Below are positions 15,949-27,432 of a DNA stretch of 27,714 bases, one piece after another. Within the stretch, counting starts at the first letter, position 1, and every line of letters starts with the position of its first letter. Source of the DNA: Chloroflexota bacterium (GTDB lineage Bacteria; Chloroflexota; Dehalococcoidia; Dehalococcoidales; RBG-16-60-22). Below the pieces are notes generated by a model that was not told the DNA's origin, ran no database searches, and was given only the letters and a program-made list of their open reading frames with translations. The translations under genes were made by a program, and so were the position numbers. Location of the stretch: contig JACPQH010000055.1 in the NCBI GenBank assembly GCA_016190585.1, positions 1 to 27,714 on the forward strand, in the 5' to 3' direction.

Positions 15949-16873
15949 TCAAGTACCTTCGATAACCCTCGATTTTCCCCGCGGCCGAGATAAAGGCGTA
16001 GCTCAGGAAAGACGCTTTTTTTTGCTGCCAGGCCCGCAGCAGGCAGAGGCCGATGCCGGGTGTCCGGAAGCTCCCCCAGGCGATATCCCGGAGCAGGCTG
16101 GCCGGGTTGCCGCGCCAGAAGAACCGGTTCATAAAAAAGACATGGTTGCGGTTGGCGTAAAAAAAGTAGCGCGCGCCGCGGCCCCGTTCCGGTCCGCCTG
16201 GCCGGGCGGCCGCTTTATGCCAGACCTTAATAGCCGGATTGACCACGACCTTGTGCCCCGCTTGCTTGACACGGAGGCATAAATCGCTTTCATAGCGGAA
16301 GCACCAGCTCTTGAGGTCGTAGACGGCGCCGTCAAAGCCGCCGACGCGCCGGAACACCTCCCCCCTTACACCCATGAAAGCCGTACGTACATGGTCTACC
16401 TCGGTAATTCCATGCCCTTCTATCAGCTTGAAGGCGGTGTTGAAGTCCCCCCGGGCGCTTATCCGGCCCGTGCCTGGCGGCAGTTGAACGGATTTTCCGA
16501 CGACCTCATCACGGCTTCTTAGCTCCATCCCGCCGGCGATGGCGATGTTCTCATCCAGCCGGAAAGTCTCGGCAAGCTCGGCGAGCTCGGTTCCCGAAAT
16601 CAGCTCGACGTCATCATCCAGCATCAGGAGGATATCTCCCCTCGCCGCCGCCGCGCCGGTATTGCAGGCGAGAAGCTGTCCCTTCATCTTGGTAGCTAAG
16701 TATCTCAGGCGGGCATCTCCCAAAGAGGCGACAGCCTCCCTTGTGCCGTCGGTTGACGGGCCGTTGTCCACGACCAGGACTTCATAGTCGGTGCAGCCCT
16801 GGCGCAGTATGGACGTCAGCGCCTGCTTCAGGTCGTCGGACCGGTTGTAAGTCGGGATTATAATCGATATCAC
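15917..16873 (-). CDS. GT2-family glycosyltransferase
   Basis: This 318-residue family 2 enzyme starts ISIIIPTYNRSDDL, then VVDNGPSTDGT with D36 (34-44), and has LMLDDDVEL (83-91) with D86-D88 as the metal/nucleotide site. GGFDGAVYDLKSWCFRYESDLCLRV (178-202) gives the aspartate/glutamate base region. HKAAARP and WRGNPASLL near the C-terminus are common in rhamnosyl- or abequosyl-type GT2 enzymes, but I would not name a sugar. It begins at GTG 16873, whose GTGA overlaps the stop of the gene upstream. The C-terminal 40 residues overlap the start of the following gene. Confidence 0.88.
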   Translation of the reverse strand: MISIIIPTYNRSDDLKQALTSILRQGCTDYEVLVVDNGPSTDGTREAVASLGDARLRYLATKMKGQLLACNTGAAAARGDILLMLDDDVELISGTELAELAETFRLDENIAIAGGMELRSRDEVVGKSVQLPPGTGRISARGDFNTAFKLIEGHGITEVDHVRTAFMGVRGEVFRRVGGFDGAVYDLKSWCFRYESDLCLRVKQAGHKVVVNPAIKVWHKAAARPGGPERGRGARYFFYANRNHVFFMNRFFWRGNPASLLRDIAWGSFRTPGIGLCLLRAWQQKKASFLSYAFISAAGKIEGYRRYLIEPEQSSNSR

Positions 16874-17985
16874 CGCAGGTACTCGAGTTCGTAGTTAAAC
16901 AATTCGGCCTGCTTTTCCCATCGTAGATTGCGGGCAAGCTCGTAGCCGTTTTCTTTAAGCTCCTCGCGCAGGTCGTTATTCTCGACCAACATGCGGACAG
17001 CTTTCTCGATGTCCGAGGTGTCATGGGGATCCACTAGGACCAGGTGCTTTTTATCTTTTACCATCTCCGTGACATCACAGTTCCGCGTCAGGATTACAGG
17101 GCAGCGCGCGGCCATGGCCTCGAATGGGGTTATAGGCCAGTGTTCAGAGAAGCTCGGCAACAGAAAAATGTGCGCGGACTTGTAAAAACGGTAGAGTTCC
17201 TCGTTGAACAGCGTCCCGGTAAAGTGGATGTCTTCTCCGCCCGTCCGGCGCGCATACTCCAGGTAGTACGGTTTGTCCGGCCCGCCGCCTATCAGCACCA
17301 ACTGATATTCAGGATGTCTTCTCTTGAAGCTGACAAAACAATCGATCACCGCCTCTGTGTTCTTAATTCTCCGCAGGAAATTGTGGACTGAGAGAATGAT
17401 CTTTTTGTCCGGGTCGACGCCGTATTTCTTCAGGAACCCAGGTGACTCAACTGTGGTATTCGAAATACGGTCGAAGTCGACGCCGTTGTGAATAACCTTG
17501 ATTCTATCTCTGTTGACGCCGGCTTCCGATAAACGATTTCCTGTCTTCTCTGAAATAGCGATGATTTTGCTCGCTTTTTCCAGTAGCAGCCGCTCCAGAG
17601 CCGGGGGATTTTTAATCCAGCGGTCGACGCCGTGGATCGTGGTAACCGCGGGCACGCCCAGGTTGATGCCGGGAATGGCGTTTATGCCCTGACCGTCGAC
17701 CACATCTAATTGTCCTCTTCGCTTTTTCAAATACCTGGTTGCCTTATTGATAAAAAATTCTTCCCAGAACCGCTTGTGATAAACCTTGTAGGGGTTGAAA
17801 TAGATCTGCAGTGGGGTGTATTTAAGACCATTTTGGTTCTGATAATGCCGGACCTTCCCCAGCGTTCCGGCGAACAGGAGCTCGACATCGGCGGACCGGG
17901 AGAGGCAGTCCGCTATACGGTGAGCCCTGGTTTCAACGCCGCCGTAGTTTATCTGGTGCAGCCAGGAAATGGATTTAACCCGCAT
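16870..17985 (-). CDS. GT4-family glycosyltransferase
   Basis: The 371-residue product has the GT4 signs HQINYGGVETRAHRIADCLS (10-29), TTIHGVDRW (115-123), KVIHNGVDFDR (163-173), ILSVHNFLRRIKN (197-209) and E281...E289 in FSEHWPITPFEAMAARCPVI. It contains no membrane segment. The gene has lower GC than its neighbours (one sampled 60-nt line near 17701 is 33%, another near 17341 is 45%), suggesting it entered by recombination. Its ATG at 17985 overlaps the stop of the upstream GT2 by 11 nt. The ribosome binding site is weak. Sugar specificity cannot be read. Confidence 0.88.
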   Translation of the reverse strand: MRVKSISWLHQINYGGVETRAHRIADCLSRSADVELLFAGTLGKVRHYQNQNGLKYTPLQIYFNPYKVYHKRFWEEFFINKATRYLKKRRGQLDVVDGQGINAIPGINLGVPAVTTIHGVDRWIKNPPALERLLLEKASKIIAISEKTGNRLSEAGVNRDRIKVIHNGVDFDRISNTTVESPGFLKKYGVDPDKKIILSVHNFLRRIKNTEAVIDCFVSFKRRHPEYQLVLIGGGPDKPYYLEYARRTGGEDIHFTGTLFNEELYRFYKSAHIFLLPSFSEHWPITPFEAMAARCPVILTRNCDVTEMVKDKKHLVLVDPHDTSDIEKAVRMLVENNDLREELKENGYELARNLRWEKQAELFNYELEYLR

Positions 17986-18943
17986 GTGTTTTTAACACCG
18001 GTCGTGCCACGCGTTTGATGATTTTTCCCGTATGGAAGCAAGCCTGCAGGGCTGGCAGGCGGCGGTTGATGGAAGCCGCAATTCGAGTCAGGCACTCCTC
18101 GTGAGTAAGCAAGCCTTTTTCGAATTTATTCAGCTCGCCAATTATAGTCCCGCCCAGTAAAACCCGAGCCGCGAGTGCGTTAATGGTCGAGAATCCTGGC
18201 TGTTTTTCTGTTACGGCTCGCGTAATGGCGTCTCGGGCCTGGCCACCGGTTATCAAACGGTGTTTGAGCCTGAGCAAGGGATCGGCAATTCTGATTTCAT
18301 ATGCCCTGGTGGCGGATAGTGACCTGTCATGCTTTCTAAACAGATATAGCGGTCTGGCCAGGTGTTTCATGCTGAACTTGCGGGAAATCCGTATCCAGTA
18401 GTCATAGTCTTCAACAAGTGATACGCCAGAATCATATTCACCGGTTTCTGCCGCGACTTCCCGCCTTAACATGAAGCACGCCCCGATGTAGTTGCCGCGC
18501 TCGAATGGCGGGAAGTCCGGGAATTTTATCGGCTTCTTCTCGGCCATTTCGTCGCTGACAGAAAAATAGTCGCAGTAAACGAAGGGGCAGTCCTGAACGG
18601 TCAAGAAGGCGACCATCTCCTCGATGGCTTGAGGTAAATACTCGTTATCGTCCGATGTCCATGTCAGAAACTCGCCCCTGGCGGCGGCGAAGCCGGTGTT
18701 CAGGGCGTGGGGGAGGCCCTTGTTTTTATCATGTTTCAGAGATTTGATTCGCGAATCTCGAAAAGAACCGATGATATCCGGCGTGTCATCGGTGGAGCCA
18801 TCGTCGACGATGATAAGCTCGATATTGGAGTACGTCTGGTTCAGGCAGCTTTCGATGGACTGGCGGAGATACCTCGCGCCGTTGTAGGTCGGCAGCACGA
18901 TGCTGACCAGCGCCTGTCCCCTTACTTCGCTATTTTTCGCCAT
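17975..18943 (-). CDS. GT2-family glycosyltransferase
   Basis: From ATG 18943 the product has 322 residues: VSIVLPTYNGARYLRQSI (13-30), VDDGSTDDTPD (46-56) and the acidic motif TSDDNEYLP (96-104) with D98-D99, followed by GVSLVEDYDYWIRISRKF, the usual catalytic-base segment. It is a typical inverting family 2 transferase. The frame is open further upstream, but that stretch lies inside the preceding gene's C-terminus; ATG 18943 gives a 14-nt overlap. The last 80 residues are helical and unassigned. GC is somewhat lower than the locus average. Confidence 0.88.
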   Translation of the reverse strand: MAKNSEVRGQALVSIVLPTYNGARYLRQSIESCLNQTYSNIELIIVDDGSTDDTPDIIGSFRDSRIKSLKHDKNKGLPHALNTGFAAARGEFLTWTSDDNEYLPQAIEEMVAFLTVQDCPFVYCDYFSVSDEMAEKKPIKFPDFPPFERGNYIGACFMLRREVAAETGEYDSGVSLVEDYDYWIRISRKFSMKHLARPLYLFRKHDRSLSATRAYEIRIADPLLRLKHRLITGGQARDAITRAVTEKQPGFSTINALAARVLLGGTIIGELNKFEKGLLTHEECLTRIAASINRRLPALQACFHTGKIIKRVARPVLKTHAG

Positions 18944-21125
18944 AGGTGAACAGCAGGTAGCCCTGGTTAAGTTTCTCGACCTCGGCCGCGTCCAGGCTGT
19001 CAAAGAAATCGCTCGCCTCCTTGCCCGGGCTCCAGAACTCCGCGGCGTGATGGAGCCCCACGGAGTACTCCACTATATTTTTCAGCCCGGCCTTCTCGAA
19101 GAGGTCCTTCATCGTGAATTTCGGGGCTTCTTTGCCGTAAGGCCACGAGCCTGCCTGCTCCCTCTTGAACTTGCCGATGCGGTAAAACAGGGAAGCGGCG
19201 TTCGGGACCAGCGCCATGACGCCCTTACGGCCGACCCGCGCCGACTCCTTTAAAACATGGATAATCTGCTCGTCGGTGAAGTGTTCGAGGAGGCCGCTGC
19301 TCCAGACCCAGGCCACCGCGCCGTCCGCGAGCGGTATGCTGTCCAGGACGTTTTGCCGGTAAAAGCTGGCCTTGATCTCCAGCTCCCGGAGGAGCTTCCC
19401 GGCGAAACCCAGGTTCTCCGCCGAGTAGTCGAGAAGGTGCGGCACGCGGCCGTATCGCCCGAGGATGGCCGAGAGCTCGCCGGTGCCGCTGCCCAGCTCC
19501 AGCATGGCGTCGCCGGAGGAGGAGTGCTGTAAAAGGGGTTTACACCAGGCCGGAAAGAGGTTGCTCTTTATTCTGTCGGTGACCGGCTTGACGTTACTGT
19601 CCCCGGTTAATACTGTGTGCCGTTCGCTAGCGTTAAGGACTGTCGCGCCCCGTATTCCCATCCAGGCCAGGAACAGGCCGTCGGCCTGATGCCCGTTGTA
19701 GCCGATCTCCTCGGCACGCACGTCATGGCAGTACTGGCCGAGCGTTGTGATAATATTCGACTTATCGAACCATTGCTCGAACTCGGTAATACCGGCATCT
19801 TTTATCTTCTCTATGTTCTTGTCAACGATGACAATTCTGCCGTTGTCCTTCAACACCCGGCACAGCTCTTCGATGGCCCGCTCGGTCCTGATGGTGTGCT
19901 CCAGCGCCTCGATACAGAACACGCCGTCGAAGGCGCCCCCGTCGTAAGGCAGGTTGAGGATGCTCCCCTGTTTAGTAATGATAGAAGCCGGGACTTCCTG
20001 GAGAAGCTCCTCAGAGATATCAAGGCCGTGCACCTCGGCGCCAGGGTAGCGCTCCTTGAGCTTCGCGGCGAACCGGCCTTTCCCGCAGCCGGCGTCAAGT
20101 ATTTTCTTCCCGGTCATGTCGCCGAGGTGTTCCGCCACCTTGCCCAATCTCCCGTCATCCGGCGCGACCTCTCTCGGGAAAATACCGGCGTTACGGTCGA
20201 AGGACGAGGCAATCATAAGGTGGACGGCGTCGAGAAAGAATTTGTTCGCCCAGCCAATCTCCTCGCGGGGGAAATAGGCCGCCTCGCGCCCGTAGCTCCC
20301 GTAGAAGCCGCCCGAGGGGTTCTGCATGGAGCACAGGTAACGCACCGCCCTGTCGGCTGCCCCATACATACCGAGCTTGTACCCGATAATGGCGAGCTGG
20401 GCGACGCCGGTGGAGCAGTCCCACTTTACGTTCGGGAAGGCGGGTATGCCGCCCTCTTTCGATTGGCGGGAAAAGATCTTCTTTACCAGGGGGCGGACAA
20501 ACTCCGCCTCGCCCATGTCGATAAGGCCGTCAATGATGTAAGCGAGAAAGTGGGTTAGAGGTTTATCTTCCAGGATGCCCGGCAGGTTTTTGTAGTGTGC
20601 CAGCGACCGCCCGGCGGCGGCCAGGTAGTCCGGCCGATCAAAGGCCCGGGCCGCCGCAATTAAAGCTGGCAGGGCAAAAACGTGTATCCCTTCAACAATG
20701 GATGCTCCATATGGGGAAGGAATTCCGCCGTCTTCGCTTATGAGAGACGCCAGATAATCGGCGGCCTTCAGGGCGAACGGTCTGAACCGGGGCCAGTGCC
20801 GGGAAGCCGCGAGCAGACCCCTGAGGGCCTGGCCGGTGTCAAAGGGGTATTTCCGACCATCCGGCCCGGCAAAGGCGCCGTCAGGCTGCTGCACCCAGGC
20901 AAGGTAGTCCGCGTACCGCTCCGCGAGCCGGGTTTCCCCGGCGTCAAGCAGGGTGGGGATAAGATAGCCGGTGACCTCCGGGTAGGGCGCGCGCTGCCGG
21001 GAGCTTATGACGACGCCCTGATCGGGAACCGTATTCTCCCTGAGCCAGTTGAGGGCGCGGTTGTAGGCGGAGATGATGCCAGACTTTGTCGAGTATTTTG
21101 GTGAATTGAAATTGAGCACCTTCAT
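18930..21125 (-). CDS. Three-domain fusion: alpha/alpha-toroid plus two SAM methyltransferases
   Basis: The 731-residue product has three regions. Residues about 17-310 contain repeated helical units with Q/E-x-D/S-G-G turns: QQPDGAF (79-85), SEDGGIPSP (130-138), SKEGGIPAF (222-230) and QNPSGGFYGSYG (268-279), resembling squalene-cyclase/prenyltransferase-type toroids. Residues about 325-490 are a class I methyltransferase with ILDAGCGKGRF (342-352) and FDGVFCIEALEHT (399-411). Residues about 525-731 hold a second one with MLELGSGTGEL (541-551) and WSSGLLEHF (608-616). No frameshift or internal start suggests separate genes. ATG 21125 overlaps the upstream stop as ATGA. It probably modifies sugars or a lipid carrier, perhaps by double methylation, but the toroid's role is unknown. 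The first 60-70 bases of the gene are AT-rich like the gene upstream, then GC rises. Confidence 0.8.
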   Translation of the reverse strand: MKVLNFNSPKYSTKSGIISAYNRALNWLRENTVPDQGVVISSRQRAPYPEVTGYLIPTLLDAGETRLAERYADYLAWVQQPDGAFAGPDGRKYPFDTGQALRGLLAASRHWPRFRPFALKAADYLASLISEDGGIPSPYGASIVEGIHVFALPALIAAARAFDRPDYLAAAGRSLAHYKNLPGILEDKPLTHFLAYIIDGLIDMGEAEFVRPLVKKIFSRQSKEGGIPAFPNVKWDCSTGVAQLAIIGYKLGMYGAADRAVRYLCSMQNPSGGFYGSYGREAAYFPREEIGWANKFFLDAVHLMIASSFDRNAGIFPREVAPDDGRLGKVAEHLGDMTGKKILDAGCGKGRFAAKLKERYPGAEVHGLDISEELLQEVPASIITKQGSILNLPYDGGAFDGVFCIEALEHTIRTERAIEELCRVLKDNGRIVIVDKNIEKIKDAGITEFEQWFDKSNIITTLGQYCHDVRAEEIGYNGHQADGLFLAWMGIRGATVLNASERHTVLTGDSNVKPVTDRIKSNLFPAWCKPLLQHSSSGDAMLELGSGTGELSAILGRYGRVPHLLDYSAENLGFAGKLLRELEIKASFYRQNVLDSIPLADGAVAWVWSSGLLEHFTDEQIIHVLKESARVGRKGVMALVPNAASLFYRIGKFKREQAGSWPYGKEAPKFTMKDLFEKAGLKNIVEYSVGLHHAAEFWSPGKEASDFFDSLDAAEVEKLNQGYLLFTYGEK

Positions 21126-22700
21126 TTTTTCTGGAGCAGCTCTTTCAACATTGATATCTGATTTCTCTTCTCCCGGCTGATAAGATCGAGGTCTGGTTTT
21201 ATCAACTCGCTGGTTATAGCTGAAGCGCCAATCCTGTCAAACAGCGCGGCGCGCGGGCTTTTAGAATACAACCTTGCGAGGTTGCCGAAAGCCAGAGTGG
21301 CTAAACAGGCATGGACTCTATCGGAATATGTCGCATAAGTATTCGCGTAGAGGTTGATATAATCATCTGGCAAATCCGAGACGAGGGTATCCTTATGGCC
21401 GGTCAAGGGTTTCACATTCTTTGACCTATTTAACATCAATTTAAGACCGGCGCGCAGGGCCCTTTCCCTTCTCGGTTTTACCAGTATCTGGTCACATGAA
21501 TGTTTAGTCCTGATGATTCTCCGTTGAGGATTCTCCGCCGGGGGCTCTTCAGATGAATCGAAATTAAAAACTATAAAATCTTTGATTCTTAACGGGGCCG
21601 GAATAAAAGCCTGCGGTAAAAAAAAAGCGCAGTCGATACCGTTAAACGATTTGGTGAAACAATCTTTATAATTGAGAAAACTCGCTTCATCCCTGGATAT
21701 AAAACCGACGACGTTAACGGAACCCAGGAAGTTTTTAAAGTTTTCGATCTCCTGGCTCGTGTAGCTCGCGCCCCCGCAGCCATTCAGGATTATCTTAACC
21801 CCCCGCCGGGACAGCTTTTCGATGACCGGGCCTTCAACCTCAATGAACTCGTCGCACAGGTTCATTCCGGAAACCACCACAAAGTCAACCTCGATCAGCT
21901 CGGCGAGGTCTATTGAAGCGTCCATGTCTATCTCATGGAGCTTGTATAGCCACCGGGGCAACTCACTCGCCATGAATACCCTGGCTCCGGGCGCCGCGGC
22001 CTTGATGGTGTACATCGACCCGTAATCAATGAAAGCGTTACCGATATTTGTCGGCCAGCAGGCGCCGTAGTACAGGATGTTCATTGCGTAACTTCCCAGG
22101 TCTGCCGTAGCTTCAAATAGCCCCTCGTGTGATCGGCTCTTTCGACAAGTATTTTCTGCTCAAGGTCCTTCCATTCAAGGACGTTAGCCTCGTCTTGCTC
22201 ACAAACGACGACCGCGCAGTGGTAGGAATCGACAGGGAGGTCCAGGGGGTCGACGATAACCCTGACAATCCCTCGACCCTTGATATCCGGCAGGCTGATC
22301 CCTTCATATGAATTCCAAAGGCCGGTGAATAGACCTGAATCGTTATAAAAACTAATACCGAATATGGGGCTCTTGATTGTCTGTTCTGAACTGTATTCGA
22401 AGTCAATTACTAGTTTTTGACCGCTCACTATCTTTTCGGCACGTTCGCCCTTGCCATTTTTGAAAGTGACCCCTTTTATGATACCGTTACCCAGGTAATT
22501 TATTGTCTCCGGGCGCGTCAGGGTCCTTTGCCGGAGCAGACCGTTCAGGTAAAACGAAATCCCGGTCTCGGTCGGGCCCCAATAAACATTCTTTCCCGTA
22601 TTTAGCACGAGGCATTGTCCCGTATATTCCCGGATAGCATATTCGTTATGGGAAATAAGCACGAGCGTTATCCCGTTCTCCCGGGTCAATTCGTGGAGCT
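21100..22700. other. AT-rich island: pyruvyl transferase gene plus 3' part of wzt
   Basis: Hand counts of sampled 60-nt lines: 40% at 21601, 47% at 22141, 40% at 22321 and 22381, 45% at 22621, then 57% at 22681, 70% at 22741 and 65% at 22921. The change is within wzt just after the Walker B region. The left limit is in the first codons of the fusion gene. Limits are approximate. Confidence 0.6.
21122..22084 (-). CDS. Polysaccharide pyruvyl transferase family protein
   Basis: The 320-residue product shows the PS_pyruv_trans pattern: YGACWPTNIGNAFIDYGSM (6-24), VDFVVVSGMNLCDEF (66-80), a glycine-rich ILNGCGGA (99-106), ISRDEASF (129-136), and SDRVHACLATLAFGN (254-268) with the conserved histidine H258. 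Family members transfer pyruvate from phosphoenolpyruvate to make ketals on surface glycans, giving them charge, though some members in this superfamily have other roles. It sits directly after wzt in transcription order, with ATGA overlaps at both ends. GC is clearly lower than the locus (about 40% in sampled lines), continuous with the 3' part of wzt. Confidence 0.78.
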   Translation of the reverse strand: MNILYYGACWPTNIGNAFIDYGSMYTIKAAAPGARVFMASELPRWLYKLHEIDMDASIDLAELIEVDFVVVSGMNLCDEFIEVEGPVIEKLSRRGVKIILNGCGGASYTSQEIENFKNFLGSVNVVGFISRDEASFLNYKDCFTKSFNGIDCAFFLPQAFIPAPLRIKDFIVFNFDSSEEPPAENPQRRIIRTKHSCDQILVKPRRERALRAGLKLMLNRSKNVKPLTGHKDTLVSDLPDDYINLYANTYATYSDRVHACLATLAFGNLARLYSKSPRAALFDRIGASAITSELIKPDLDLISREKRNQISMLKELLQKK

Positions 22701-23295
22701 TCCGAAAGCACTTTATCTGGAAATCCCTGTCCCCCACCGCCAGCACCTCGTCCACCAGCAGGACGTCCGGCTCGCAGTGGACGGCCACGGCAAAGCCCAG
22801 CCGCACGTACATGCCGGAGCTGTAGTTCTTCACCGGCATATCCAGGAAATCGCCGATATCGGCGAACGCCACGATGTCATCGAACTTGCGGTCGATTTCC
22901 TTCTTGCTCATGCCCAGGATGGCGCCGTTGATGTAGATATTCTCCCGGCCCGACAGCATCGGGTGGAAGCCGGCGCCGATCTCGATGAGCGCGCCCACCC
23001 GCCCGTTTATCCGTATCTCGCCCTTGTCCGGCAGGTAGATGCCGCTCAGCATCTTGAGGATGGTGCTCTTGCCCGAGCCGTTCGGCCCGATGAGACCCAG
23101 CGTCTCGCCGCGCCTTAGCTGGAAGGAGACGTCGTTGACCGCCCAGAACTCGTCCTTACGCAGGCGGTCGGAACCGGTGCCCATGCCGAGCAGGTTCCGG
23201 CTGACGTCCTTCAGGCCGTAGAGCATCGAGGCGCGGAAGGAGCGGCAGAACTTCTTCGAGACGTGGTCGACCGATATGGCGATCTCGCTGTCCAT
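22081..23295 (-). CDS. wzt: Polysaccharide ABC exporter ATPase with C-terminal glycan-recognition domain
   Basis: The 404-residue product has an ATPase domain at about 1-235 with Walker A GPNGSGKST (70-78), signature YSSGM (158-162), Walker B VLLVDE (178-183) and H-loop LISHN with H216. Residues about 240-404 form a Wzt_C-type beta-sandwich (FKNGKGERAEKIVSGQKLVI, then SPIFGISFYNDSG). By analogy with O-antigen Wzt proteins this domain recognises the terminal residue of the finished chain. It pairs with the permease gene just upstream. ATG 23295 was preferred to GTG 23298 because GGAGAGG is 5 nt from ATG; the start overlaps the permease stop (TGATG). Base composition changes abruptly near 22700, about residue 190-200, from about 65-70% to 40-47% GC. 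Confidence 0.92.
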   Translation of the reverse strand: MDSEIAISVDHVSKKFCRSFRASMLYGLKDVSRNLLGMGTGSDRLRKDEFWAVNDVSFQLRRGETLGLIGPNGSGKSTILKMLSGIYLPDKGEIRINGRVGALIEIGAGFHPMLSGRENIYINGAILGMSKKEIDRKFDDIVAFADIGDFLDMPVKNYSSGMYVRLGFAVAVHCEPDVLLVDEVLAVGDRDFQIKCFRKLHELTRENGITLVLISHNEYAIREYTGQCLVLNTGKNVYWGPTETGISFYLNGLLRQRTLTRPETINYLGNGIIKGVTFKNGKGERAEKIVSGQKLVIDFEYSSEQTIKSPIFGISFYNDSGLFTGLWNSYEGISLPDIKGRGIVRVIVDPLDLPVDSYHCAVVVCEQDEANVLEWKDLEQKILVERADHTRGYLKLRQTWEVTQ

Positions 23296-24140
23296 CACAG
23301 CCTCTCCGCCAGCCGCATCTCGGTCAGCTTGAATATCATCCAGGAACCGATAAAGACCGCGACGGCCAGCAGCGCCGACCAGGCAAAGCCGCGGATTTCC
23401 AGCTCGCCCGCCCCGATTAGCAGGTCCCGGGGCACGGCCACCAGGTAGTACAGCGGGTTATAGCGGGTGACATCGGCGATGACGCCCAGGGCCGGCTTGA
23501 CGTAGAGTACCGGCGTCAGGAACATGAGGAAGGTGACCAGGACGGAGATGCCGAAACCGACATCCCGGATAATCACGTTCAGCAGCGCGAGCAGGAGCCC
23601 GAGGCCGACTGTCATCAGCAGCAGCGGTATCATCGCCAGGGGCACCAGCAGGGCGGTCACCGGCGGCGCGGCCCGGTACAGGCCGAACAGGACGATGACC
23701 AGCGTGATTTGCAATAGCGACGGGATGATGCCCTGCGCCGCCGAGGAAAACACCAGCGCTTCCCGCGGGAACTTGATCTTGGTTATCATCGTGCCGCCGC
23801 CCACCAGTGAGCCGGCGCTCAGCGTCAGCCCCAGCGAGAAGACCTGCCAGCAGGCCGTCCCCGCCACGGCGAACACCGGGTAAGGCACCGTGGTCTCGCC
23901 GACATCCAGCACGCCGCCGCTGTTGAGGAAGATGAAGGTGCCGACGCCCATCAGCGGCACGATAAGCATCCAGAAGATCCCGAGCAGCGACTGCCGGTAG
24001 GTGCCGCGGAAGTTCCGGCGGAAGAGCTGCTGGATGAGCCAGCGGTTGTCGAAGGCCTCGGCGAACATGCCCCTGACCAGGAGCATGACGCCCTGCCTGA
24101 CCGGTTTATCGGGGAAGTACCTGGTCGAGGTCTTGTTCAT
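23295..24140 (-). CDS. wzm: Polysaccharide ABC exporter permease
   Basis: The 281-residue ABC-2 type permease has a polar N-terminal lead with LIQQLFRRNFRGTYRQSLLG (35-54), the amphipathic entry of the Wzm/TagG family, followed by about six membrane segments (for example 55-73, 92-113, 131-155, 165-190, 195-216 and 252-273). TRYNPLYYLVAVPRDLLIG (226-244) is the conserved re-entrant region before the last helix. It would form the membrane channel with the Wzt ATPase and export the finished, lipid-linked glycan. Its ATG overlaps the upstream gene as ATGA, and its stop overlaps wzt. High GC agrees with the conserved backbone of the locus. Confidence 0.93.
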   Translation of the reverse strand: MNKTSTRYFPDKPVRQGVMLLVRGMFAEAFDNRWLIQQLFRRNFRGTYRQSLLGIFWMLIVPLMGVGTFIFLNSGGVLDVGETTVPYPVFAVAGTACWQVFSLGLTLSAGSLVGGGTMITKIKFPREALVFSSAAQGIIPSLLQITLVIVLFGLYRAAPPVTALLVPLAMIPLLLMTVGLGLLLALLNVIIRDVGFGISVLVTFLMFLTPVLYVKPALGVIADVTRYNPLYYLVAVPRDLLIGAGELEIRGFAWSALLAVAVFIGSWMIFKLTEMRLAERL

Positions 24141-25222
24141 GACGCGGATTTCTCTTTTCCCCGCGTGCGAAACGGCCAGGCGCGACCGAGCTGTTGTCTC
24201 AAGGCAGACAGGCGGGATGTGCGCCTTATCATGTTTTGGAACGCCCGGCTTTCATCGGGGCTTAACGTTTTCGGGTGATACTCGCCTCTTGAGCAGGCCG
24301 CGGCTATATTCCGGGCGAAGGCGAGATAGGCGTTGCCCACCATCTCCAGGGAGGGGAGGTCAATCAGGGACTGGTAGCGCGCGTAGTCCCCGGCGACCTT
24401 GTCGATGGCGGCGATGGCTTCCCCGTCACTGCTGAAGAGTTCCCCGGCCTGGCCGGTAATCTCGGGGTGGCCGCCGTCATTCCTGGCCACGGCCGGCAGG
24501 CCGCAGTGGAGGGCCTCGATAAGGGAATTCGAGCAGGGGTCGCTCTCGCTGGCGGTGATGTATATATCGTGCTCCTTCAATATACCGGCCAGCTCATGGC
24601 TGGGGACCGGCTTCAACCGTTTAATGTTCCTGAACGCAACGGGCGAGTTCCCGACAAATGTCATCTCGTACCTGTTGAAATCAAGCCTTTCGTCGAGATA
24701 CCGGTAGAGCTCGAAGCCCTTCCTGGCGTTGCTCGACCAGGAGCTTGCGATGAGTCTCACCTTCCCCTTGAATTCCCTGCTCCCATCGCGATTGAATATT
24801 CTGGTGTCGGGCGCATTAATGATTGTCGTTTCAAACGGAGACCTGCTCATCCCGTCTTCGTAGTTCTTGAGCCGGCTCCAGCCGGACTGGAAAACCGTCC
24901 CGTCAACGAACAGGCGATTAAATTCAAAGATGGTCTTATCGATGGCGCCGTCCCTGCCTCTGATACGGGATACCGGGCCGTCCAGCCGGTGAACTACAAT
25001 AGTATCCTGTTTTACTTTGAGATCAATTGTTAATTCAAATAATCGCTCATTTCCAAAAGGATAGCTGTTGAACAGAATCACTCGGGCGTCTTCGGGAGCT
25101 TCTGAATAAACACATATCTTTCTGAGGTGCTCTCTGAGCGCCTTTAAGAACTGATTGCCCCCACCCCAGGGCCCGTCCACGAATTCATGCATTATATGGA
25201 GTGTAATTCCGTCTTCAATCAT
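24137..25222 (-). CDS. GT4-like glycosyltransferase, probable chimera
   Basis: The 361-residue product opens with HIMHEFVDGPWGGGNQFLKA (9-28), which is also the sequence type of the stub at 26331-26402. It has VVHRLDGPVSR (76-86), a donor domain start KVRLIASSWSSNARKGF (154-170), MTFVGN (187-192) and SESDPCSNSLIEALHCGLP (225-243), where the EX7E position reads D228...E236. The first 150 codons are AT-richer (32-60%, about 48% in hand-counted lines) than the rest (about 60%), so the N- and C-terminal halves may have different origins, with the break near the GT-B linker. The ATG starts 1 nt after the previous stop and has no good ribosome binding site; the downstream permease overlaps it as ATGA. 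Confidence 0.82.
   Translation of the reverse strand: MIEDGITLHIMHEFVDGPWGGGNQFLKALREHLRKICVYSEAPEDARVILFNSYPFGNERLFELTIDLKVKQDTIVVHRLDGPVSRIRGRDGAIDKTIFEFNRLFVDGTVFQSGWSRLKNYEDGMSRSPFETTIINAPDTRIFNRDGSREFKGKVRLIASSWSSNARKGFELYRYLDERLDFNRYEMTFVGNSPVAFRNIKRLKPVPSHELAGILKEHDIYITASESDPCSNSLIEALHCGLPAVARNDGGHPEITGQAGELFSSDGEAIAAIDKVAGDYARYQSLIDLPSLEMVGNAYLAFARNIAAACSRGEYHPKTLSPDESRAFQNMIRRTSRLSALRQQLGRAWPFRTRGKEKSAS
25142..25183 (-). repeat. Diverged direct repeat, copy in the full glycosyltransferase
   Basis: These 42 nt match 26337-26378 at 35 of 42 positions by hand alignment, same orientation, about 1.2 kb apart. Differences are all at third codon positions or in one leucine codon, so the copies are homologous coding sequence that diverged under selection and not a recent duplication. 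Confidence 0.75.
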
Positions 25223-25223
25223 T

Positions 25224-26327
25224 CTAAGGAACGAACTCTTTGAACTTCAATTCTTTGTCAATACCCAATAGTCGAGAGACGAGAGCTATGCCCCAGAGAA
25301 GCAGAACCGTGCCGTGAATATCAGGCTCGTTTAACCCTCGTGTAATTTTCGCGCCGTAATAGTATTGGTTCGCTCTTCCTGGGAAGAATGAAAATCCGCC
25401 TACGTCGCTGAAATAATGCCTTTTGGCGGTTTTTAACCATGTATAACAGAAATTCATAATATCATTATACCGATAACTTCGTCTTGTCAAGTAATTGGAA
25501 TAATGGAGTACATAAATCACGTCAAGAACGTTACAAGCTTGGTCATAAGTGTCTTGAGATAGACAAAGATCAATTAATAGTTCGGGGTATTTAAAATTCA
25601 ATTTATCAACTGTCTTTAGACCGGTGATAACTTTCATGGCACCATTTATTTTTTGAGTCTTAGACGTAACCTTCCCCTTGTACCAGCTGCCGTCTTCCGC
25701 CGATTGTAATTTGCTAATCCATTCAATGGCATAATTAATAAGCTCAACACTAGCTTTGGGACTGCAAAACATCTCATTGTTTACCCTAAGAAAGAATAGC
25801 AAATGGCTGAAATGGCTTGCGGCTCCGTAAGGTTCTCCCCAATTAAGCTTTTCTAAATATTGTCCGATCCCTTCCAGGGTATGAGGAAGTTTTACATATG
25901 GGAAATCCGGTCGGGACCGCAATAGTCGGAGCGTTGAAACAGATTGTCTGGTTTCAGCACGCCTAATCTTTTCACCGTTTGAGAAATCGAGATTCTTTAA
26001 TGCGTATAATTTGGCCAGCAAAGTGGTTTTTGGGGAGATGAGAGGATCGTAAATGCTGCCATCTCTTCTCTGAAAGCTTTTGATAAAGTTGATAATGTCC
26101 CCTAGTTCGTTCTCAGGTAAATTGTCGAGAAGATCCAAAGTATAATAAACCCGAGCAGCGAAGACCGTGTTACCCAAGCCCCAGTTCTGTTTTTCGGTAT
26201 AAAGGTCGCCTGTCAACGAGTACCTAGAATAGCCCCTCTTTTTAACGTTTCTAAGTCTATCGAGAAAAGCCGGCACTTTATTTTTTAACTCATAAATCCA
26301 GTCTATGTCATTGCTTTCTCGGTTCAT
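25224..26327 (-). CDS. AT-rich predicted alpha/alpha-toroid protein
   Basis: The 367-residue protein is not a known enzyme to me. It is mostly helical, with repeated turns FQRRDGSIYDP (85-95), LQSAEDGSWYKGK (207-219) and YFSDVGGFSFFPG (305-317), each between helix pairs, as in squalene-cyclase-like or other (alpha/alpha) toroids. RRAETRQSVSTL (122-133) and LNEPDIHGTVLLLWG (332-346) look conserved-type. There is no signal peptide or membrane segment. One 60-nt line at 25501 is 37% GC, far below the locus. Its ribosome binding site, AAGG 8 nt before ATG 26327, lies inside the 3' end of the upstream stub. It shares the toroid pattern with the N-terminal domain of the 731-residue fusion. Possibly a sugar-modifying enzyme; this is inference. 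Confidence 0.65.
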   Translation of the reverse strand: MNRESNDIDWIYELKNKVPAFLDRLRNVKKRGYSRYSLTGDLYTEKQNWGLGNTVFAARVYYTLDLLDNLPENELGDIINFIKSFQRRDGSIYDPLISPKTTLLAKLYALKNLDFSNGEKIRRAETRQSVSTLRLLRSRPDFPYVKLPHTLEGIGQYLEKLNWGEPYGAASHFSHLLFFLRVNNEMFCSPKASVELINYAIEWISKLQSAEDGSWYKGKVTSKTQKINGAMKVITGLKTVDKLNFKYPELLIDLCLSQDTYDQACNVLDVIYVLHYSNYLTRRSYRYNDIMNFCYTWLKTAKRHYFSDVGGFSFFPGRANQYYYGAKITRGLNEPDIHGTVLLLWGIALVSRLLGIDKELKFKEFVP

Positions 26328-26330
26328 ATT

Positions 26331-26402
26331 TTAAACCTTCAGGAACTGGTTGCCGCCGCCCCAGGGCCCTTCGACGAATTTATACGAGATATGTATCTTT
26401 AA
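26331..26402 (-). pseudogene. 5' stub of a glycosyltransferase gene
   Basis: Read on the minus strand, 23 codons then TAA encode LKIHISYKFVEGPWGGGNQF followed by LKV. Aligned with residues about 7-27 of the full gene at 24137-25222, 15 of 21 residues are identical, including FV-x-GPWGGGNQFLK. The stub has no ATG, GTG or TTG at its beginning (TTA stands where a start would be expected), and its first 23 bases overlap the end of the upstream glycosyltransferase gene. After the conserved LK it stops at once and the AT-rich gene begins 3 nt later. I read it as the left-over N-terminus of a transferase cut by recombination. Confidence 0.8.
26337..26378 (-). repeat. Diverged direct repeat, copy in the stub
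   Basis: Partner of the 25142-25183 copy. This one uses GC-ending codons (GGC GGC GGC AAC CAG TTC CTG), like the locus backbone, while the other uses GGT, AAT and TTA. Confidence 0.75.
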
Positions 26403-27432
26403 AGTGCTCGTAAATCTCCTTCCACCGGCGCAGCGCGGGCACGTAAGATGCGACGTCGTAAGCTTTGTCGAAGTTGGCGGCGATGACCTGGTTCAATGCC
26501 TTGCCCTTGATTATCTCCTCAATCTTGGCCGCCGCCTCTTCCGCGGAGCGGTACAAGCACCAGGGGTCCAGGAAGTCCGGGGCGAGCCCGACATCCGTGC
26601 TCAGAATCATCGTCCGGGCGAAGGCCGACTCCAGCACCGCTTTCGGCCCTCCCTCGCTCGTTGAGGACACCAGGTAGACATCAGTCAGGTTGTAGAGCCG
26701 GTTGATGGCCGGCTTATCCAGCGTGTTCGAGCCGATGTCGTCTTTCATGGCCTGGGGCGAAACCCCGTAGAAAAGGAACGGGATATTCAGCCGCTGGCAC
26801 TCATTGATTATCCAGTGGCGCCGCGGCCCGGCCAGCAGCAGGACGAATTTCTTCTTTGGCAGGAGCGCGCAGATCTTGACCAGAAGGTTGGGCCCCTTTT
26901 GCCACTTCGGCTGGCCCAGGTCCGCCCCGAGCGAGTCCCGCTGAAAAGAGCCCAGTATCAGCTTGTTATCGAGCAGGCGATAGTCGATGTCCAGCTCGCG
27001 GGCGAGCTCCCTTTTAGCGCGGCCGAGCCTGACAAAGAGGCTCTCATCAACGTAAAAGGGCTGGTACCTGACGTCAATACCGGCTTCCTGGAAAACCCGG
27101 CACTGGCGCTGGCTCGGGGCCAGCCAGAGATTTATGAGCCCCTTCACCCGCTGGAATTCCGGGCTGGCCGGATCGATTTCGTTGGTGGCGGCGGCCATTA
27201 TCTTCTTCCAGCGCAGCGGGTAGGCCCGGCGCTCCAGCAGCAGGTTCCACCACACCGAGTGGACCATGTCCGCCAGGGGGAAAAAACCGGTAATCTTCAC
27301 CTGCAATCTTCGCAAAAAGTCCTGGGTGTAATGCCGGTCGTAGTCGATTGACCAGCCTGTGCCGTCCCGCCCGTGCAGGAAAACCCGCAGCGGTCTCGCC
27401 TCCGGCCCTTTCACGGACTGTACCAGCCTCAT
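26380..27432 (-). CDS. GT4-family glycosyltransferase
   Basis: The 350-residue product starts MRLVQSVKGPEARPLRVFLH; the ATG at 27432 overlaps the upstream gene's stop as ATGA. The frame is open further upstream, but inside that gene. It has LINLWLAPSQRQ (99-110), YQPFYVDESLF (123-133), ILGSFQRDS (159-167), LLLAGPRRHW (198-207), VSSTSEGGPKAVLESAFA (255-272) with E260...E268 of EX7E, and the pattern VGLAPDFLDP. It has only a short N-terminal Rossmann-like domain, so it is smaller than a usual GT4. Its last codons overlap the glycosyltransferase stub, as successive operon genes do elsewhere here. Sugar specificity is unknown. Confidence 0.82.
   Translation of the reverse strand: MRLVQSVKGPEARPLRVFLHGRDGTGWSIDYDRHYTQDFLRRLQVKITGFFPLADMVHSVWWNLLLERRAYPLRWKKIMAAATNEIDPASPEFQRVKGLINLWLAPSQRQCRVFQEAGIDVRYQPFYVDESLFVRLGRAKRELARELDIDYRLLDNKLILGSFQRDSLGADLGQPKWQKGPNLLVKICALLPKKKFVLLLAGPRRHWIINECQRLNIPFLFYGVSPQAMKDDIGSNTLDKPAINRLYNLTDVYLVSSTSEGGPKAVLESAFARTMILSTDVGLAPDFLDPWCLYRSAEEAAAKIEEIIKGKALNQVIAANFDKAYDVASYVPALRRWKEIYEHFKDTYLV

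What the first reader, a model, noticed from the sequence alone, without database searches (positions are those of the whole stretch)
24137..26402. Recombination scar: glycosyltransferase stub, AT-rich insert and a probable chimeric glycosyltransferase
Seen directly: a 23-codon stub (26331-26402) whose sequence matches the N-terminus of the full gene at 24137-25222 (15 of 21 residues, 35 of 42 nt in the core), lacks a start codon and stops right after the matching part. The AT-rich toroid gene lies between stub and full gene, using a ribosome binding site inside the stub's 3' end. The stub has GC-ending codons like the backbone, while the full gene's N-terminal third is AT-richer than its C-terminal half. 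Inference: incoming DNA carrying the toroid gene plus the 5' part of a related transferase recombined inside the resident transferase gene. The resident 5' end remains as the stub; the resident 3' end was kept in a hybrid enzyme. This would be a worked example of how such loci gain a modification gene while swapping the acceptor half of a GT-B enzyme.
Basis: partly seen in the sequence, partly recalled or inferred. Interest (0 to 1): 0.75.

Follow-up and report, generated by a model that had tools for sequence, protein, structure and literature searches.

The report
Hybrid sugar-transferase gene with leftover stub
In a cell-surface sugar gene cluster, a sugar-attaching enzyme looks stitched together from two related genes next to a 23-codon scrap of an older copy, and its relatives seem to have traded about the same stretch of their first half many times, one version of which tends to travel with a companion gene.

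Summary
The 23-codon stub (26331-26402, -) matches the N-terminus of the downstream transferase (GT, 24137-25222), has no start codon, and is separated from it by the AT-rich toroid gene (TOR, 25224-26327). GC3 in GT switches at codon 77 (0.42 to 0.76; 0 of 2000 shuffles), not near codon 150.

A hybrid GT is supported, not proven. Relatives have a LONG or SHORT segment around residues 31-77. By equal contig length LONG GTs are linked to TOR (18 of 60; SHORT 0 of 59). The window GT has the LONG insert, is somewhat nearer LONG over 31-77 and nearer SHORT over 78-306. The family seems to exchange this segment: the C-part tree needs 22 LONG/SHORT changes, the segment tree 3; AU rejects one LONG clade.

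The insertion model needs correcting. In 6 of 6 genome loci with a LONG GT and TOR, the GT lies upstream of TOR, 5 directly. The stub therefore sits where a full GT belongs. Best reading: donor GT-TOR DNA recombined into the resident GT, giving GT-TOR-GT; the first GT was then deleted to the stub. No close relative could be read as DNA, so straight insertion and misassembly stay open.

The parts
26380..27432 (-). Upstream glycosyltransferase gene (UPGT, GT4-like, 350 aa); its 3' end overlaps the stub
   Evidence: Pfam PF00534/PF13692; a homologue lies directly upstream of the GT in 11 of 21 GT-driven genome loci
26331..26402 (-). Stub: 23 sense codons and a stop, remnant of the N-terminus of a GT-family gene; no start codon
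   Evidence: 15/21 aa, 47/63 nt to the GT N-terminus; sits at the place of the full GT in UPGT-GT-TOR loci
26336..26339 (-). AAGG: last bases shared by stub and GT coding sequence, also the presumed TOR ribosome-binding site; proposed deletion join
   Evidence: Direct reading. L031 has ...AAAAGGTTAATTTATG at its GT/TOR junction against window ...GAAGGTTTAAAATATG; the other loci differ
25224..26327 (-). TOR: predicted all-helical, probably alpha/alpha toroid protein, 367 aa, AT-rich
   Evidence: GC3 0.43; model pLDDT 85; weak fold matches to prenyltransferase beta subunits and GH105
24137..25222 (-). GT: GT-B fold glycosyltransferase, 361 aa, probable hybrid
   Evidence: Pfam; model pLDDT 88, matches BshA, MshA and others; GC3 change point
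24992..25132 (-). Residues 31-77 of GT: segment that differs most between near-identical relatives of different class; LONG type here
   Evidence: incongruent trees
25049..25063 (-). Residues 54-58 (YPFGN), the five residues present in LONG and absent in SHORT relatives
24991..24992 (-). Composition break in GT, between codons 77 and 78, at the conserved HRLDGP motif

Best explanation
The stub is what remains of the GT gene that once stood between UPGT and TOR, and the downstream GT is a hybrid. Proposed history: (a) the resident locus was UPGT-GT (GC-rich, probably SHORT type) followed by the ABC transporter genes; (b) donor DNA carrying a LONG GT followed by TOR recombined with the resident GT at the conserved HRxDGP block near codon 77. 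If the donor molecule was circular or tandem, one crossover gives UPGT-[resident 5'/donor 3' GT]-TOR-[donor 5'/resident 3' GT]; (c) the first, redundant GT was deleted from its conserved GGNQFLK block to its own 3' end, joining at AAGG, which kept the TOR ribosome-binding site and left the 23-codon stub; (d) the hybrid GT now carries the LONG segment that goes with TOR on a backbone-type catalytic half. Shown here: the stub, the GC3 break, LONG/TOR linkage, the GT-then-TOR order in six loci, and family trees that disagree about the segment. Inferred: the donor, the single crossover, the deletion, the acceptor role of the segment, and any role of TOR.
For: GC3 and codon-usage switch at codon 77, 0 of 2000 shuffles. 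LONG GTs share contig lengths with TOR hits in 18 of 60, SHORT 0 of 59, Fisher 1.7e-6; shifted-length controls give a mean of 0.9 and at most 4 coincidences. In draws of 285 genomes of one class, 5 of 7 GT-bearing genomes are LONG and all five have TOR; the other two are not LONG and are not among the TOR-positive genomes. Window GT: it has the LONG insert; residues 31-77 without 53-59 are nearer all LONG (43.6 vs 37.8%), 78-306 nearer all SHORT (61.7 vs 59.2%). GT upstream of TOR in 6 of 6 LONG loci: L029, L031, L042, L072, L073, L076. Stop-to-ATG spacing at the stub/TOR join is 3 nt, as in L031. Segment exchange: C-part tree 22 changes, at least 11 on starred branches; segment tree 3; AU p 0.0028.
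Against: No GT-TOR-GT intermediate was seen and no close relative of the window could be read as DNA. Over 31-77 the window GT is no nearer the 18 TOR-linked LONG GTs (mean 39.4%) than the 13 UPGT-linked SHORT ones (38.7%). In the C-part tree it groups weakly (80/74) with one SHORT and two LONG rows. Three other window genes also have low GC3 (0.60-0.66). In cross-class pairs the diverged block ends at 70-76 in 4 of 12 and at 92-106 in 8 of 12, so codon 77 is not the main edge there. The one-base TOR/GT spacing (TAGAATG) is unexplained unless the donor was circular or tandem; plasmids gave no TOR and one 20%-coverage GT match. AAGG is only 4 bases, and only L031 of the loci read resembles the stub/TOR join closely. 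LONG/TOR linkage in metagenomes rests on equal contig lengths; 42 of 60 LONG hits share none with a listed TOR hit. In 11 supported LONG/SHORT sister pairs TOR linkage agreed in 3-5, disagreed in 0, was uninformative in the rest (median p 0.125).
Confidence: 0.5

Rival explanations
1. Straight insertion: a donor piece TOR + GT 5' end replaced the middle of the resident GT in one event, with an end-joined left side at the stub and homologous recombination on the right at codon 77.
For: Contiguous AT-rich block from about 26335 to 24992; UPGT-GT without TOR is common; one step fewer than the deletion model.
Against: Needs a donor with TOR directly upstream of a LONG GT; 6 of 6 readable loci have the opposite order. 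The TOR ribosome-binding site would come from the stub's coding sequence by luck.
Confidence: 0.25
2. No hybrid: a whole LONG GT was acquired with TOR, or rearranged in place, and the GC3 step reflects constraint or amelioration within one gene; the stub is a simple deletion remnant.
For: GT GC3 overall (0.69) is not extreme and three other window genes are at 0.60-0.66; the 31-76 region diverges fast even within a class; no special affinity of 31-77 to TOR-linked GTs.
Against: A sharp change point at 77 with 0 of 2000 shuffles; opposite LONG/SHORT affinity on its two sides; other near-identical GTs differ in about the same block and the trees conflict.
Confidence: 0.15
3. The stub is a functional leader or short gene controlling TOR translation.
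For: It contains the presumed TOR ribosome-binding site and stops 3 nt before the TOR start.
Against: No start codon; stub-query hits in the loci with TOR lie at GT starts, none as a separate short piece upstream of TOR.
Confidence: 0.03
4. Assembly chimera joining two strains at conserved GT sequence.
For: Each of the three window proteins is listed with one member on one contig; no independent copy of the junctions is held.
Against: The left join shares only AAGG with the GT sequence, short for an assembly overlap; TOR and GT frames are intact across the right break.
Confidence: 0.07

Closest known systems
GT4-type GT-B glycosyltransferases of polysaccharide loci (PF13692/PF00534; solved relatives by fold BshA, MshA, WbnH)
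   Same: Pfam hits and predicted GT-B fold
   Different: Family N-terminal block GPWGGGNQFLK, two segment types around residues 31-77, and linkage of one of them to TOR; no characterised member was met in these calls
Engineered GT-B domain swaps (PMC10937113, passages read)
   Same: Chimeras joining an acceptor-binding N-terminal part to a donor-binding C-terminal part
   Different: Here natural, and a part of the N-terminal domain is exchanged, not the whole domain
Recombination and pseudogene formation in bacterial glycosyltransferase genes, e.g. Neisseria pgl (PMC6959607, passages read)
   Same: Intragenic recombination and decay of protein-glycosylation (pgl) genes as a source of glycan diversity
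   Different: The passages seen describe mixtures of disrupting mutations and gene loss, not an exchangeable segment tied to a partner gene

Membership tests
GT-B (GT4-like) glycosyltransferase | Glycosyl transferases group 1 domain above Pfam cut-off | tested here: met
   PF13692 34.8 bits (cut-off 27), PF00534 32.3 (26.4)
GT-B (GT4-like) glycosyltransferase | Two Rossmann-like domains, GT-B fold | tested here: met
   Model pLDDT 87.8; PDB matches BshA, MshA, GlgM, TM up to 0.69
GT-B (GT4-like) glycosyltransferase | Sugar transfer activity | not testable with these tools
   No enzyme assay
Recombinant (hybrid) gene | Internal break in composition | tested here: met
   Codon 77, 0 of 2000 shuffles
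Recombinant (hybrid) gene | Different affinities on the two sides | tested here: inconclusive
   31-77 nearer all LONG, 78-306 nearer all SHORT, differences of 6 and 2.5 points, rows not independent; but 31-77 is equally far from TOR-linked LONG and UPGT-linked SHORT (39.4 vs 38.7%)
Recombinant (hybrid) gene | Identified parental sequences | tested here: inconclusive
   Best listed relatives are at most 64% identical; no parent found
Alpha/alpha toroid (prenyltransferase-like) protein, for TOR | PF00432 match | tested here: not met
   Window TOR has none; 10 of 27 family members match at E up to 1 (best 8.8e-6)
Alpha/alpha toroid (prenyltransferase-like) protein, for TOR | Toroid fold | tested here: inconclusive
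   Mostly helical model, pLDDT 85; best Foldseek E 8.2e-4, TM of the top 20 rows 0.33-0.48

The most novel reading that the evidence does not exclude
This glycosyltransferase family carries an exchangeable acceptor segment (about residues 31-77, in some swaps reaching 92-106) next to two near-invariant blocks (GPWGGGNQFLKALR and HRxDGP). It is swapped as a unit many times across bacteria and archaea, and one segment type works only together with the TOR protein, so segment and TOR gene are gained and lost together; the window caught one such exchange with its scars.
Probability: 0.35. Interest if true: 0.7.

Novelty: new variant of a known kind. Interest (0 to 1): 0.55.

Why it matters
Glycosyltransferase specificity is hard to predict. 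A natural, repeated exchange of one small segment, correlated with one partner gene, would point to the part of the enzyme that reads the acceptor, give ready-made natural swap pairs (for example P0005/P0046 or P0050/P0060) for assay, and suggest that the uncharacterised toroid protein acts on the same glycan as the LONG-type enzyme. The window also gives a possible order of steps by which a polysaccharide locus can change its product while keeping its backbone.

Tried and rejected
No whole genome is held for the window, so sister strains could not be read. TOR and UPGT in viral contigs: nothing; GT alignment in viral contigs: 17 loci, not used further. TOR on plasmids: none; GT on plasmids: one partial match. 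TOR in genomes: 4 of 379, 1 of 227 with two loci, 0 of 39, 2 of 294, one of them weak, 1 of 1, 4 of 239, 6 of 285; these draws overlap. UPGT in 198 genomes of the phylum of G013: 8, two strong, one intermediate, five weak. Homology of TOR to the toroid-like N-part of 18930-21125: not detectable. A lost TTG start: in 14 of 30 close UPGT relatives (P0242-P0271) the residue at this place is Glu, in 10 Lys; Glu would give TTG in the stub frame where the window has TTA; suggestive only, relatives' DNA not seen. Papers: eight searches listed nothing that I recognised as an exchangeable acceptor segment or a TOR partner; passages were read in PMC6436433 (not on point), PMC6959607 and PMC10937113.

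Full report
What is there. All genes discussed are on the - strand. In transcription order: UPGT (27432-26380), stub (26402-26331), TOR (26327-25224), GT (25222-24137), then an ABC-2 permease and an ABC ATPase with a Wzt-like C-terminal domain. The window is a polysaccharide synthesis and export cluster. The stub reads LKIHISYKFVEGPWGGGNQFLKV*, overlaps the end of UPGT by 23 nt, and matches GT codons 7-27 in 15 of 21 residues, 47 of 63 nt and 35 of 42 core nt, with no start codon. After its last AAGG it runs straight into TTTAAAATATG, the TOR start. One base separates the TOR stop from the GT start.

Composition. GC3 is 0.81 in UPGT, 0.91 in the permease, 0.43 in TOR, 0.42 in GT codons 1-77 and 0.76 in the rest of GT; the best change point is codon 77 (near-equal support 75-80 and 88), with 0 of 2000 shuffles as strong. 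A codon-usage contrast of TOR against nine window genes also switches after codon 77. The AT-rich block is therefore about 26335 to 24992. The stub is at GC3 0.70 and nearer the backbone, but is short. Three other window genes have GC3 of only 0.60-0.66, so low GC3 is not unique to this block.

Relatives. GT has 2349 hits, TOR 729 and UPGT 610; the best 120 of each were listed, window proteins included. Taking equal longest-contig lengths as a fingerprint, 18 of 119 GT hits share a contig length with a listed TOR hit and 16 with a listed UPGT hit; sliding the lengths by 1 to 25 gives a mean of 0.9 and at most 4 and 3. The one such UPGT/GT contig with names is called Chloroflexota (P0044/P0262); other named GT hits are Cloacimonadota and Patescibacteria. 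The organism of the window is not established.

LONG and SHORT. At GT residues 54-58 relatives either have five residues (NSYPFGxE, LONG) or lack most of them (NSH-HCL, SHORT). Of 119 relatives, 60 are LONG and 59 SHORT. TOR-linked: 18 LONG, 0 SHORT (Fisher 1.7e-6). UPGT-linked without TOR: 13 SHORT, 1 LONG; UPGT- and TOR-linked: 2 LONG. Among 22 GT-driven genome loci, 21 cover this region (L021 does not); one is LONG (L003) and it is the only one with TOR in the fetched DNA; in L007 the contig ends at the GT, so TOR could not have been seen. In draws of 285 genomes of one class, GT (E up to 1e-60) occurs in 7 and TOR in 6; five genomes have both and all five are LONG, the two with GT alone are not LONG, and the sixth TOR genome (G318, L030) has only a divergent GT. 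Corrected for kinship the LONG/TOR link is consistent but not significant: of 11 supported LONG/SHORT pairs, TOR agreed in 3-5, disagreed in none, median p 0.125.

Gene order. Loci with a LONG GT and TOR: L031 (same as L003), L029, L042, L072, L073, L076. In all six the GT is upstream of TOR on the same strand, directly in five; in L073 about 4.7 kb lie between. In L031, L029, L072 and L076 a UPGT homologue is directly upstream of the GT (matches in the first three are partial, 30-35%). TOR loci without a LONG GT: L028 and L030 (divergent GT, then one or two ORFs, then TOR), L043 (TOR-UPGT-GT), L047 (only partial GT matches, not next to TOR), and L048 (a 21-22% match only). UPGT is directly upstream of GT in 11 of 21 GT-driven loci, 10 of them without TOR. 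So UPGT-GT and UPGT-GT-TOR are both established arrangements, and in the window's UPGT-stub-TOR-GT the stub is where the GT belongs. At the L031 junction the DNA reads AAAAGGTTAATTTATG, closely like the window's GAAGGTTTAAAATATG; the other loci differ.

Segment exchange in the family. A tree of GT residues 81-306 (86 of the 120 rows) needs 22 changes of LONG/SHORT, at least 11 on starred branches (bootstrap not settled, correlation 0.970). A tree of residues 28-77 without the indel columns needs 3 (46 columns, poorly resolved). Holding LONG together on the C-part tree costs 563 log units, AU p 0.0028; the classes were defined before the tree. Pairs at least 78% identical over 90-306 but of different class (31 of 93 pairs) average 92% over residues 17-30, then 53, 44 and 34% over 31-76, then 76 and 70% over 77-90 and 91-110; same-class pairs (62) average 91, then 58, 79 and 63, then 82 and 78%. 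In pairs at 82% or more, the best-scoring diverged block ends at 70-76 in 4 of 12 cross-class pairs and at 92-106 in 8 of 12; in 10 of 29 same-class pairs, drawn largely from a few related proteins, it ends at 73-77. The window's break at 77 thus matches one of two recurrent edges. Rapid divergence without exchange may explain the same-class pairs. In the model, residues 31-77 run from the end of helix 1 through strand 2, the loop and helix 2 to strand 3 of the N-terminal domain. That GT-B N-terminal domains bind the acceptor is stated in PMC10937113 (passages); that this segment does so is inference.

The window GT in this frame. It has the LONG insert. Over 31-77 (insert region left out) it is nearer all LONG than all SHORT (43.6 against 37.8%), over 78-306 nearer all SHORT (61.7 against 59.2%); rows are related, so the p-values of about 1e-4 are nominal. 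Against this, over 31-77 it is no nearer the 18 TOR-linked LONG GTs (39.4%) than the 13 UPGT-linked SHORT ones (38.7%). In the C-part tree four of the five nearest by path are SHORT, but the window row groups, weakly (80/74), with one SHORT and two LONG rows.

How it probably works. Donor GT-TOR DNA entering a resident UPGT-GT locus and crossing over at HRxDGP near codon 77 would, if circular or tandem, give two hybrid GTs flanking TOR. Only the downstream one pairs the TOR-type segment with the resident catalytic part. The other was trimmed to a stub at AAGG, which left TOR its ribosome-binding site. A straight insertion of TOR plus GT 5' end explains the same final map with a donor order not seen in any locus that I read. 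Both share the hybrid GT, which I hold at about 0.75; the deletion route over the insertion route I hold at about two to one.

Limits.

Noticed in passing
L031 7361-7507 (G002:C16): A second copy of the TOR 3' end (121 of 137 nt identical to the full TOR, the first 44 identical) lies beyond a 395-aa ORF downstream of the full TOR: an independent scar in a GT-TOR locus.
   Followed up: partly
window 18930-21125: A 731-aa ORF joins a squalene-cyclase-like toroid stretch to methyltransferase domains; no detectable homology to TOR.
   Followed up: partly
window 16750-18750 and 21000-22750: Two further AT-richer stretches in the cluster (GC about 0.44-0.56), possible separate acquisitions.
   Followed up: no
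L028 8992-9621; L030 6369-7707; P0050: One or two ORFs lie between the divergent GT and TOR in two genomes, and one metagenome GT is fused to a methyltransferase domain, with a contig length shared with TOR.
   Followed up: no
L049-L065: Seventeen IMG/VR viral contigs encode GT-family relatives (31-43% identical), so phages may carry this family.
   Followed up: no
L042 and L043 (G765): In one genome of the phylum of G001 (whose locus L001 is named Candidatus Borrarchaeum) the three genes occur in two cyclic orders, GT-TOR-UPGT and TOR-UPGT-GT, at two loci.
   Followed up: no
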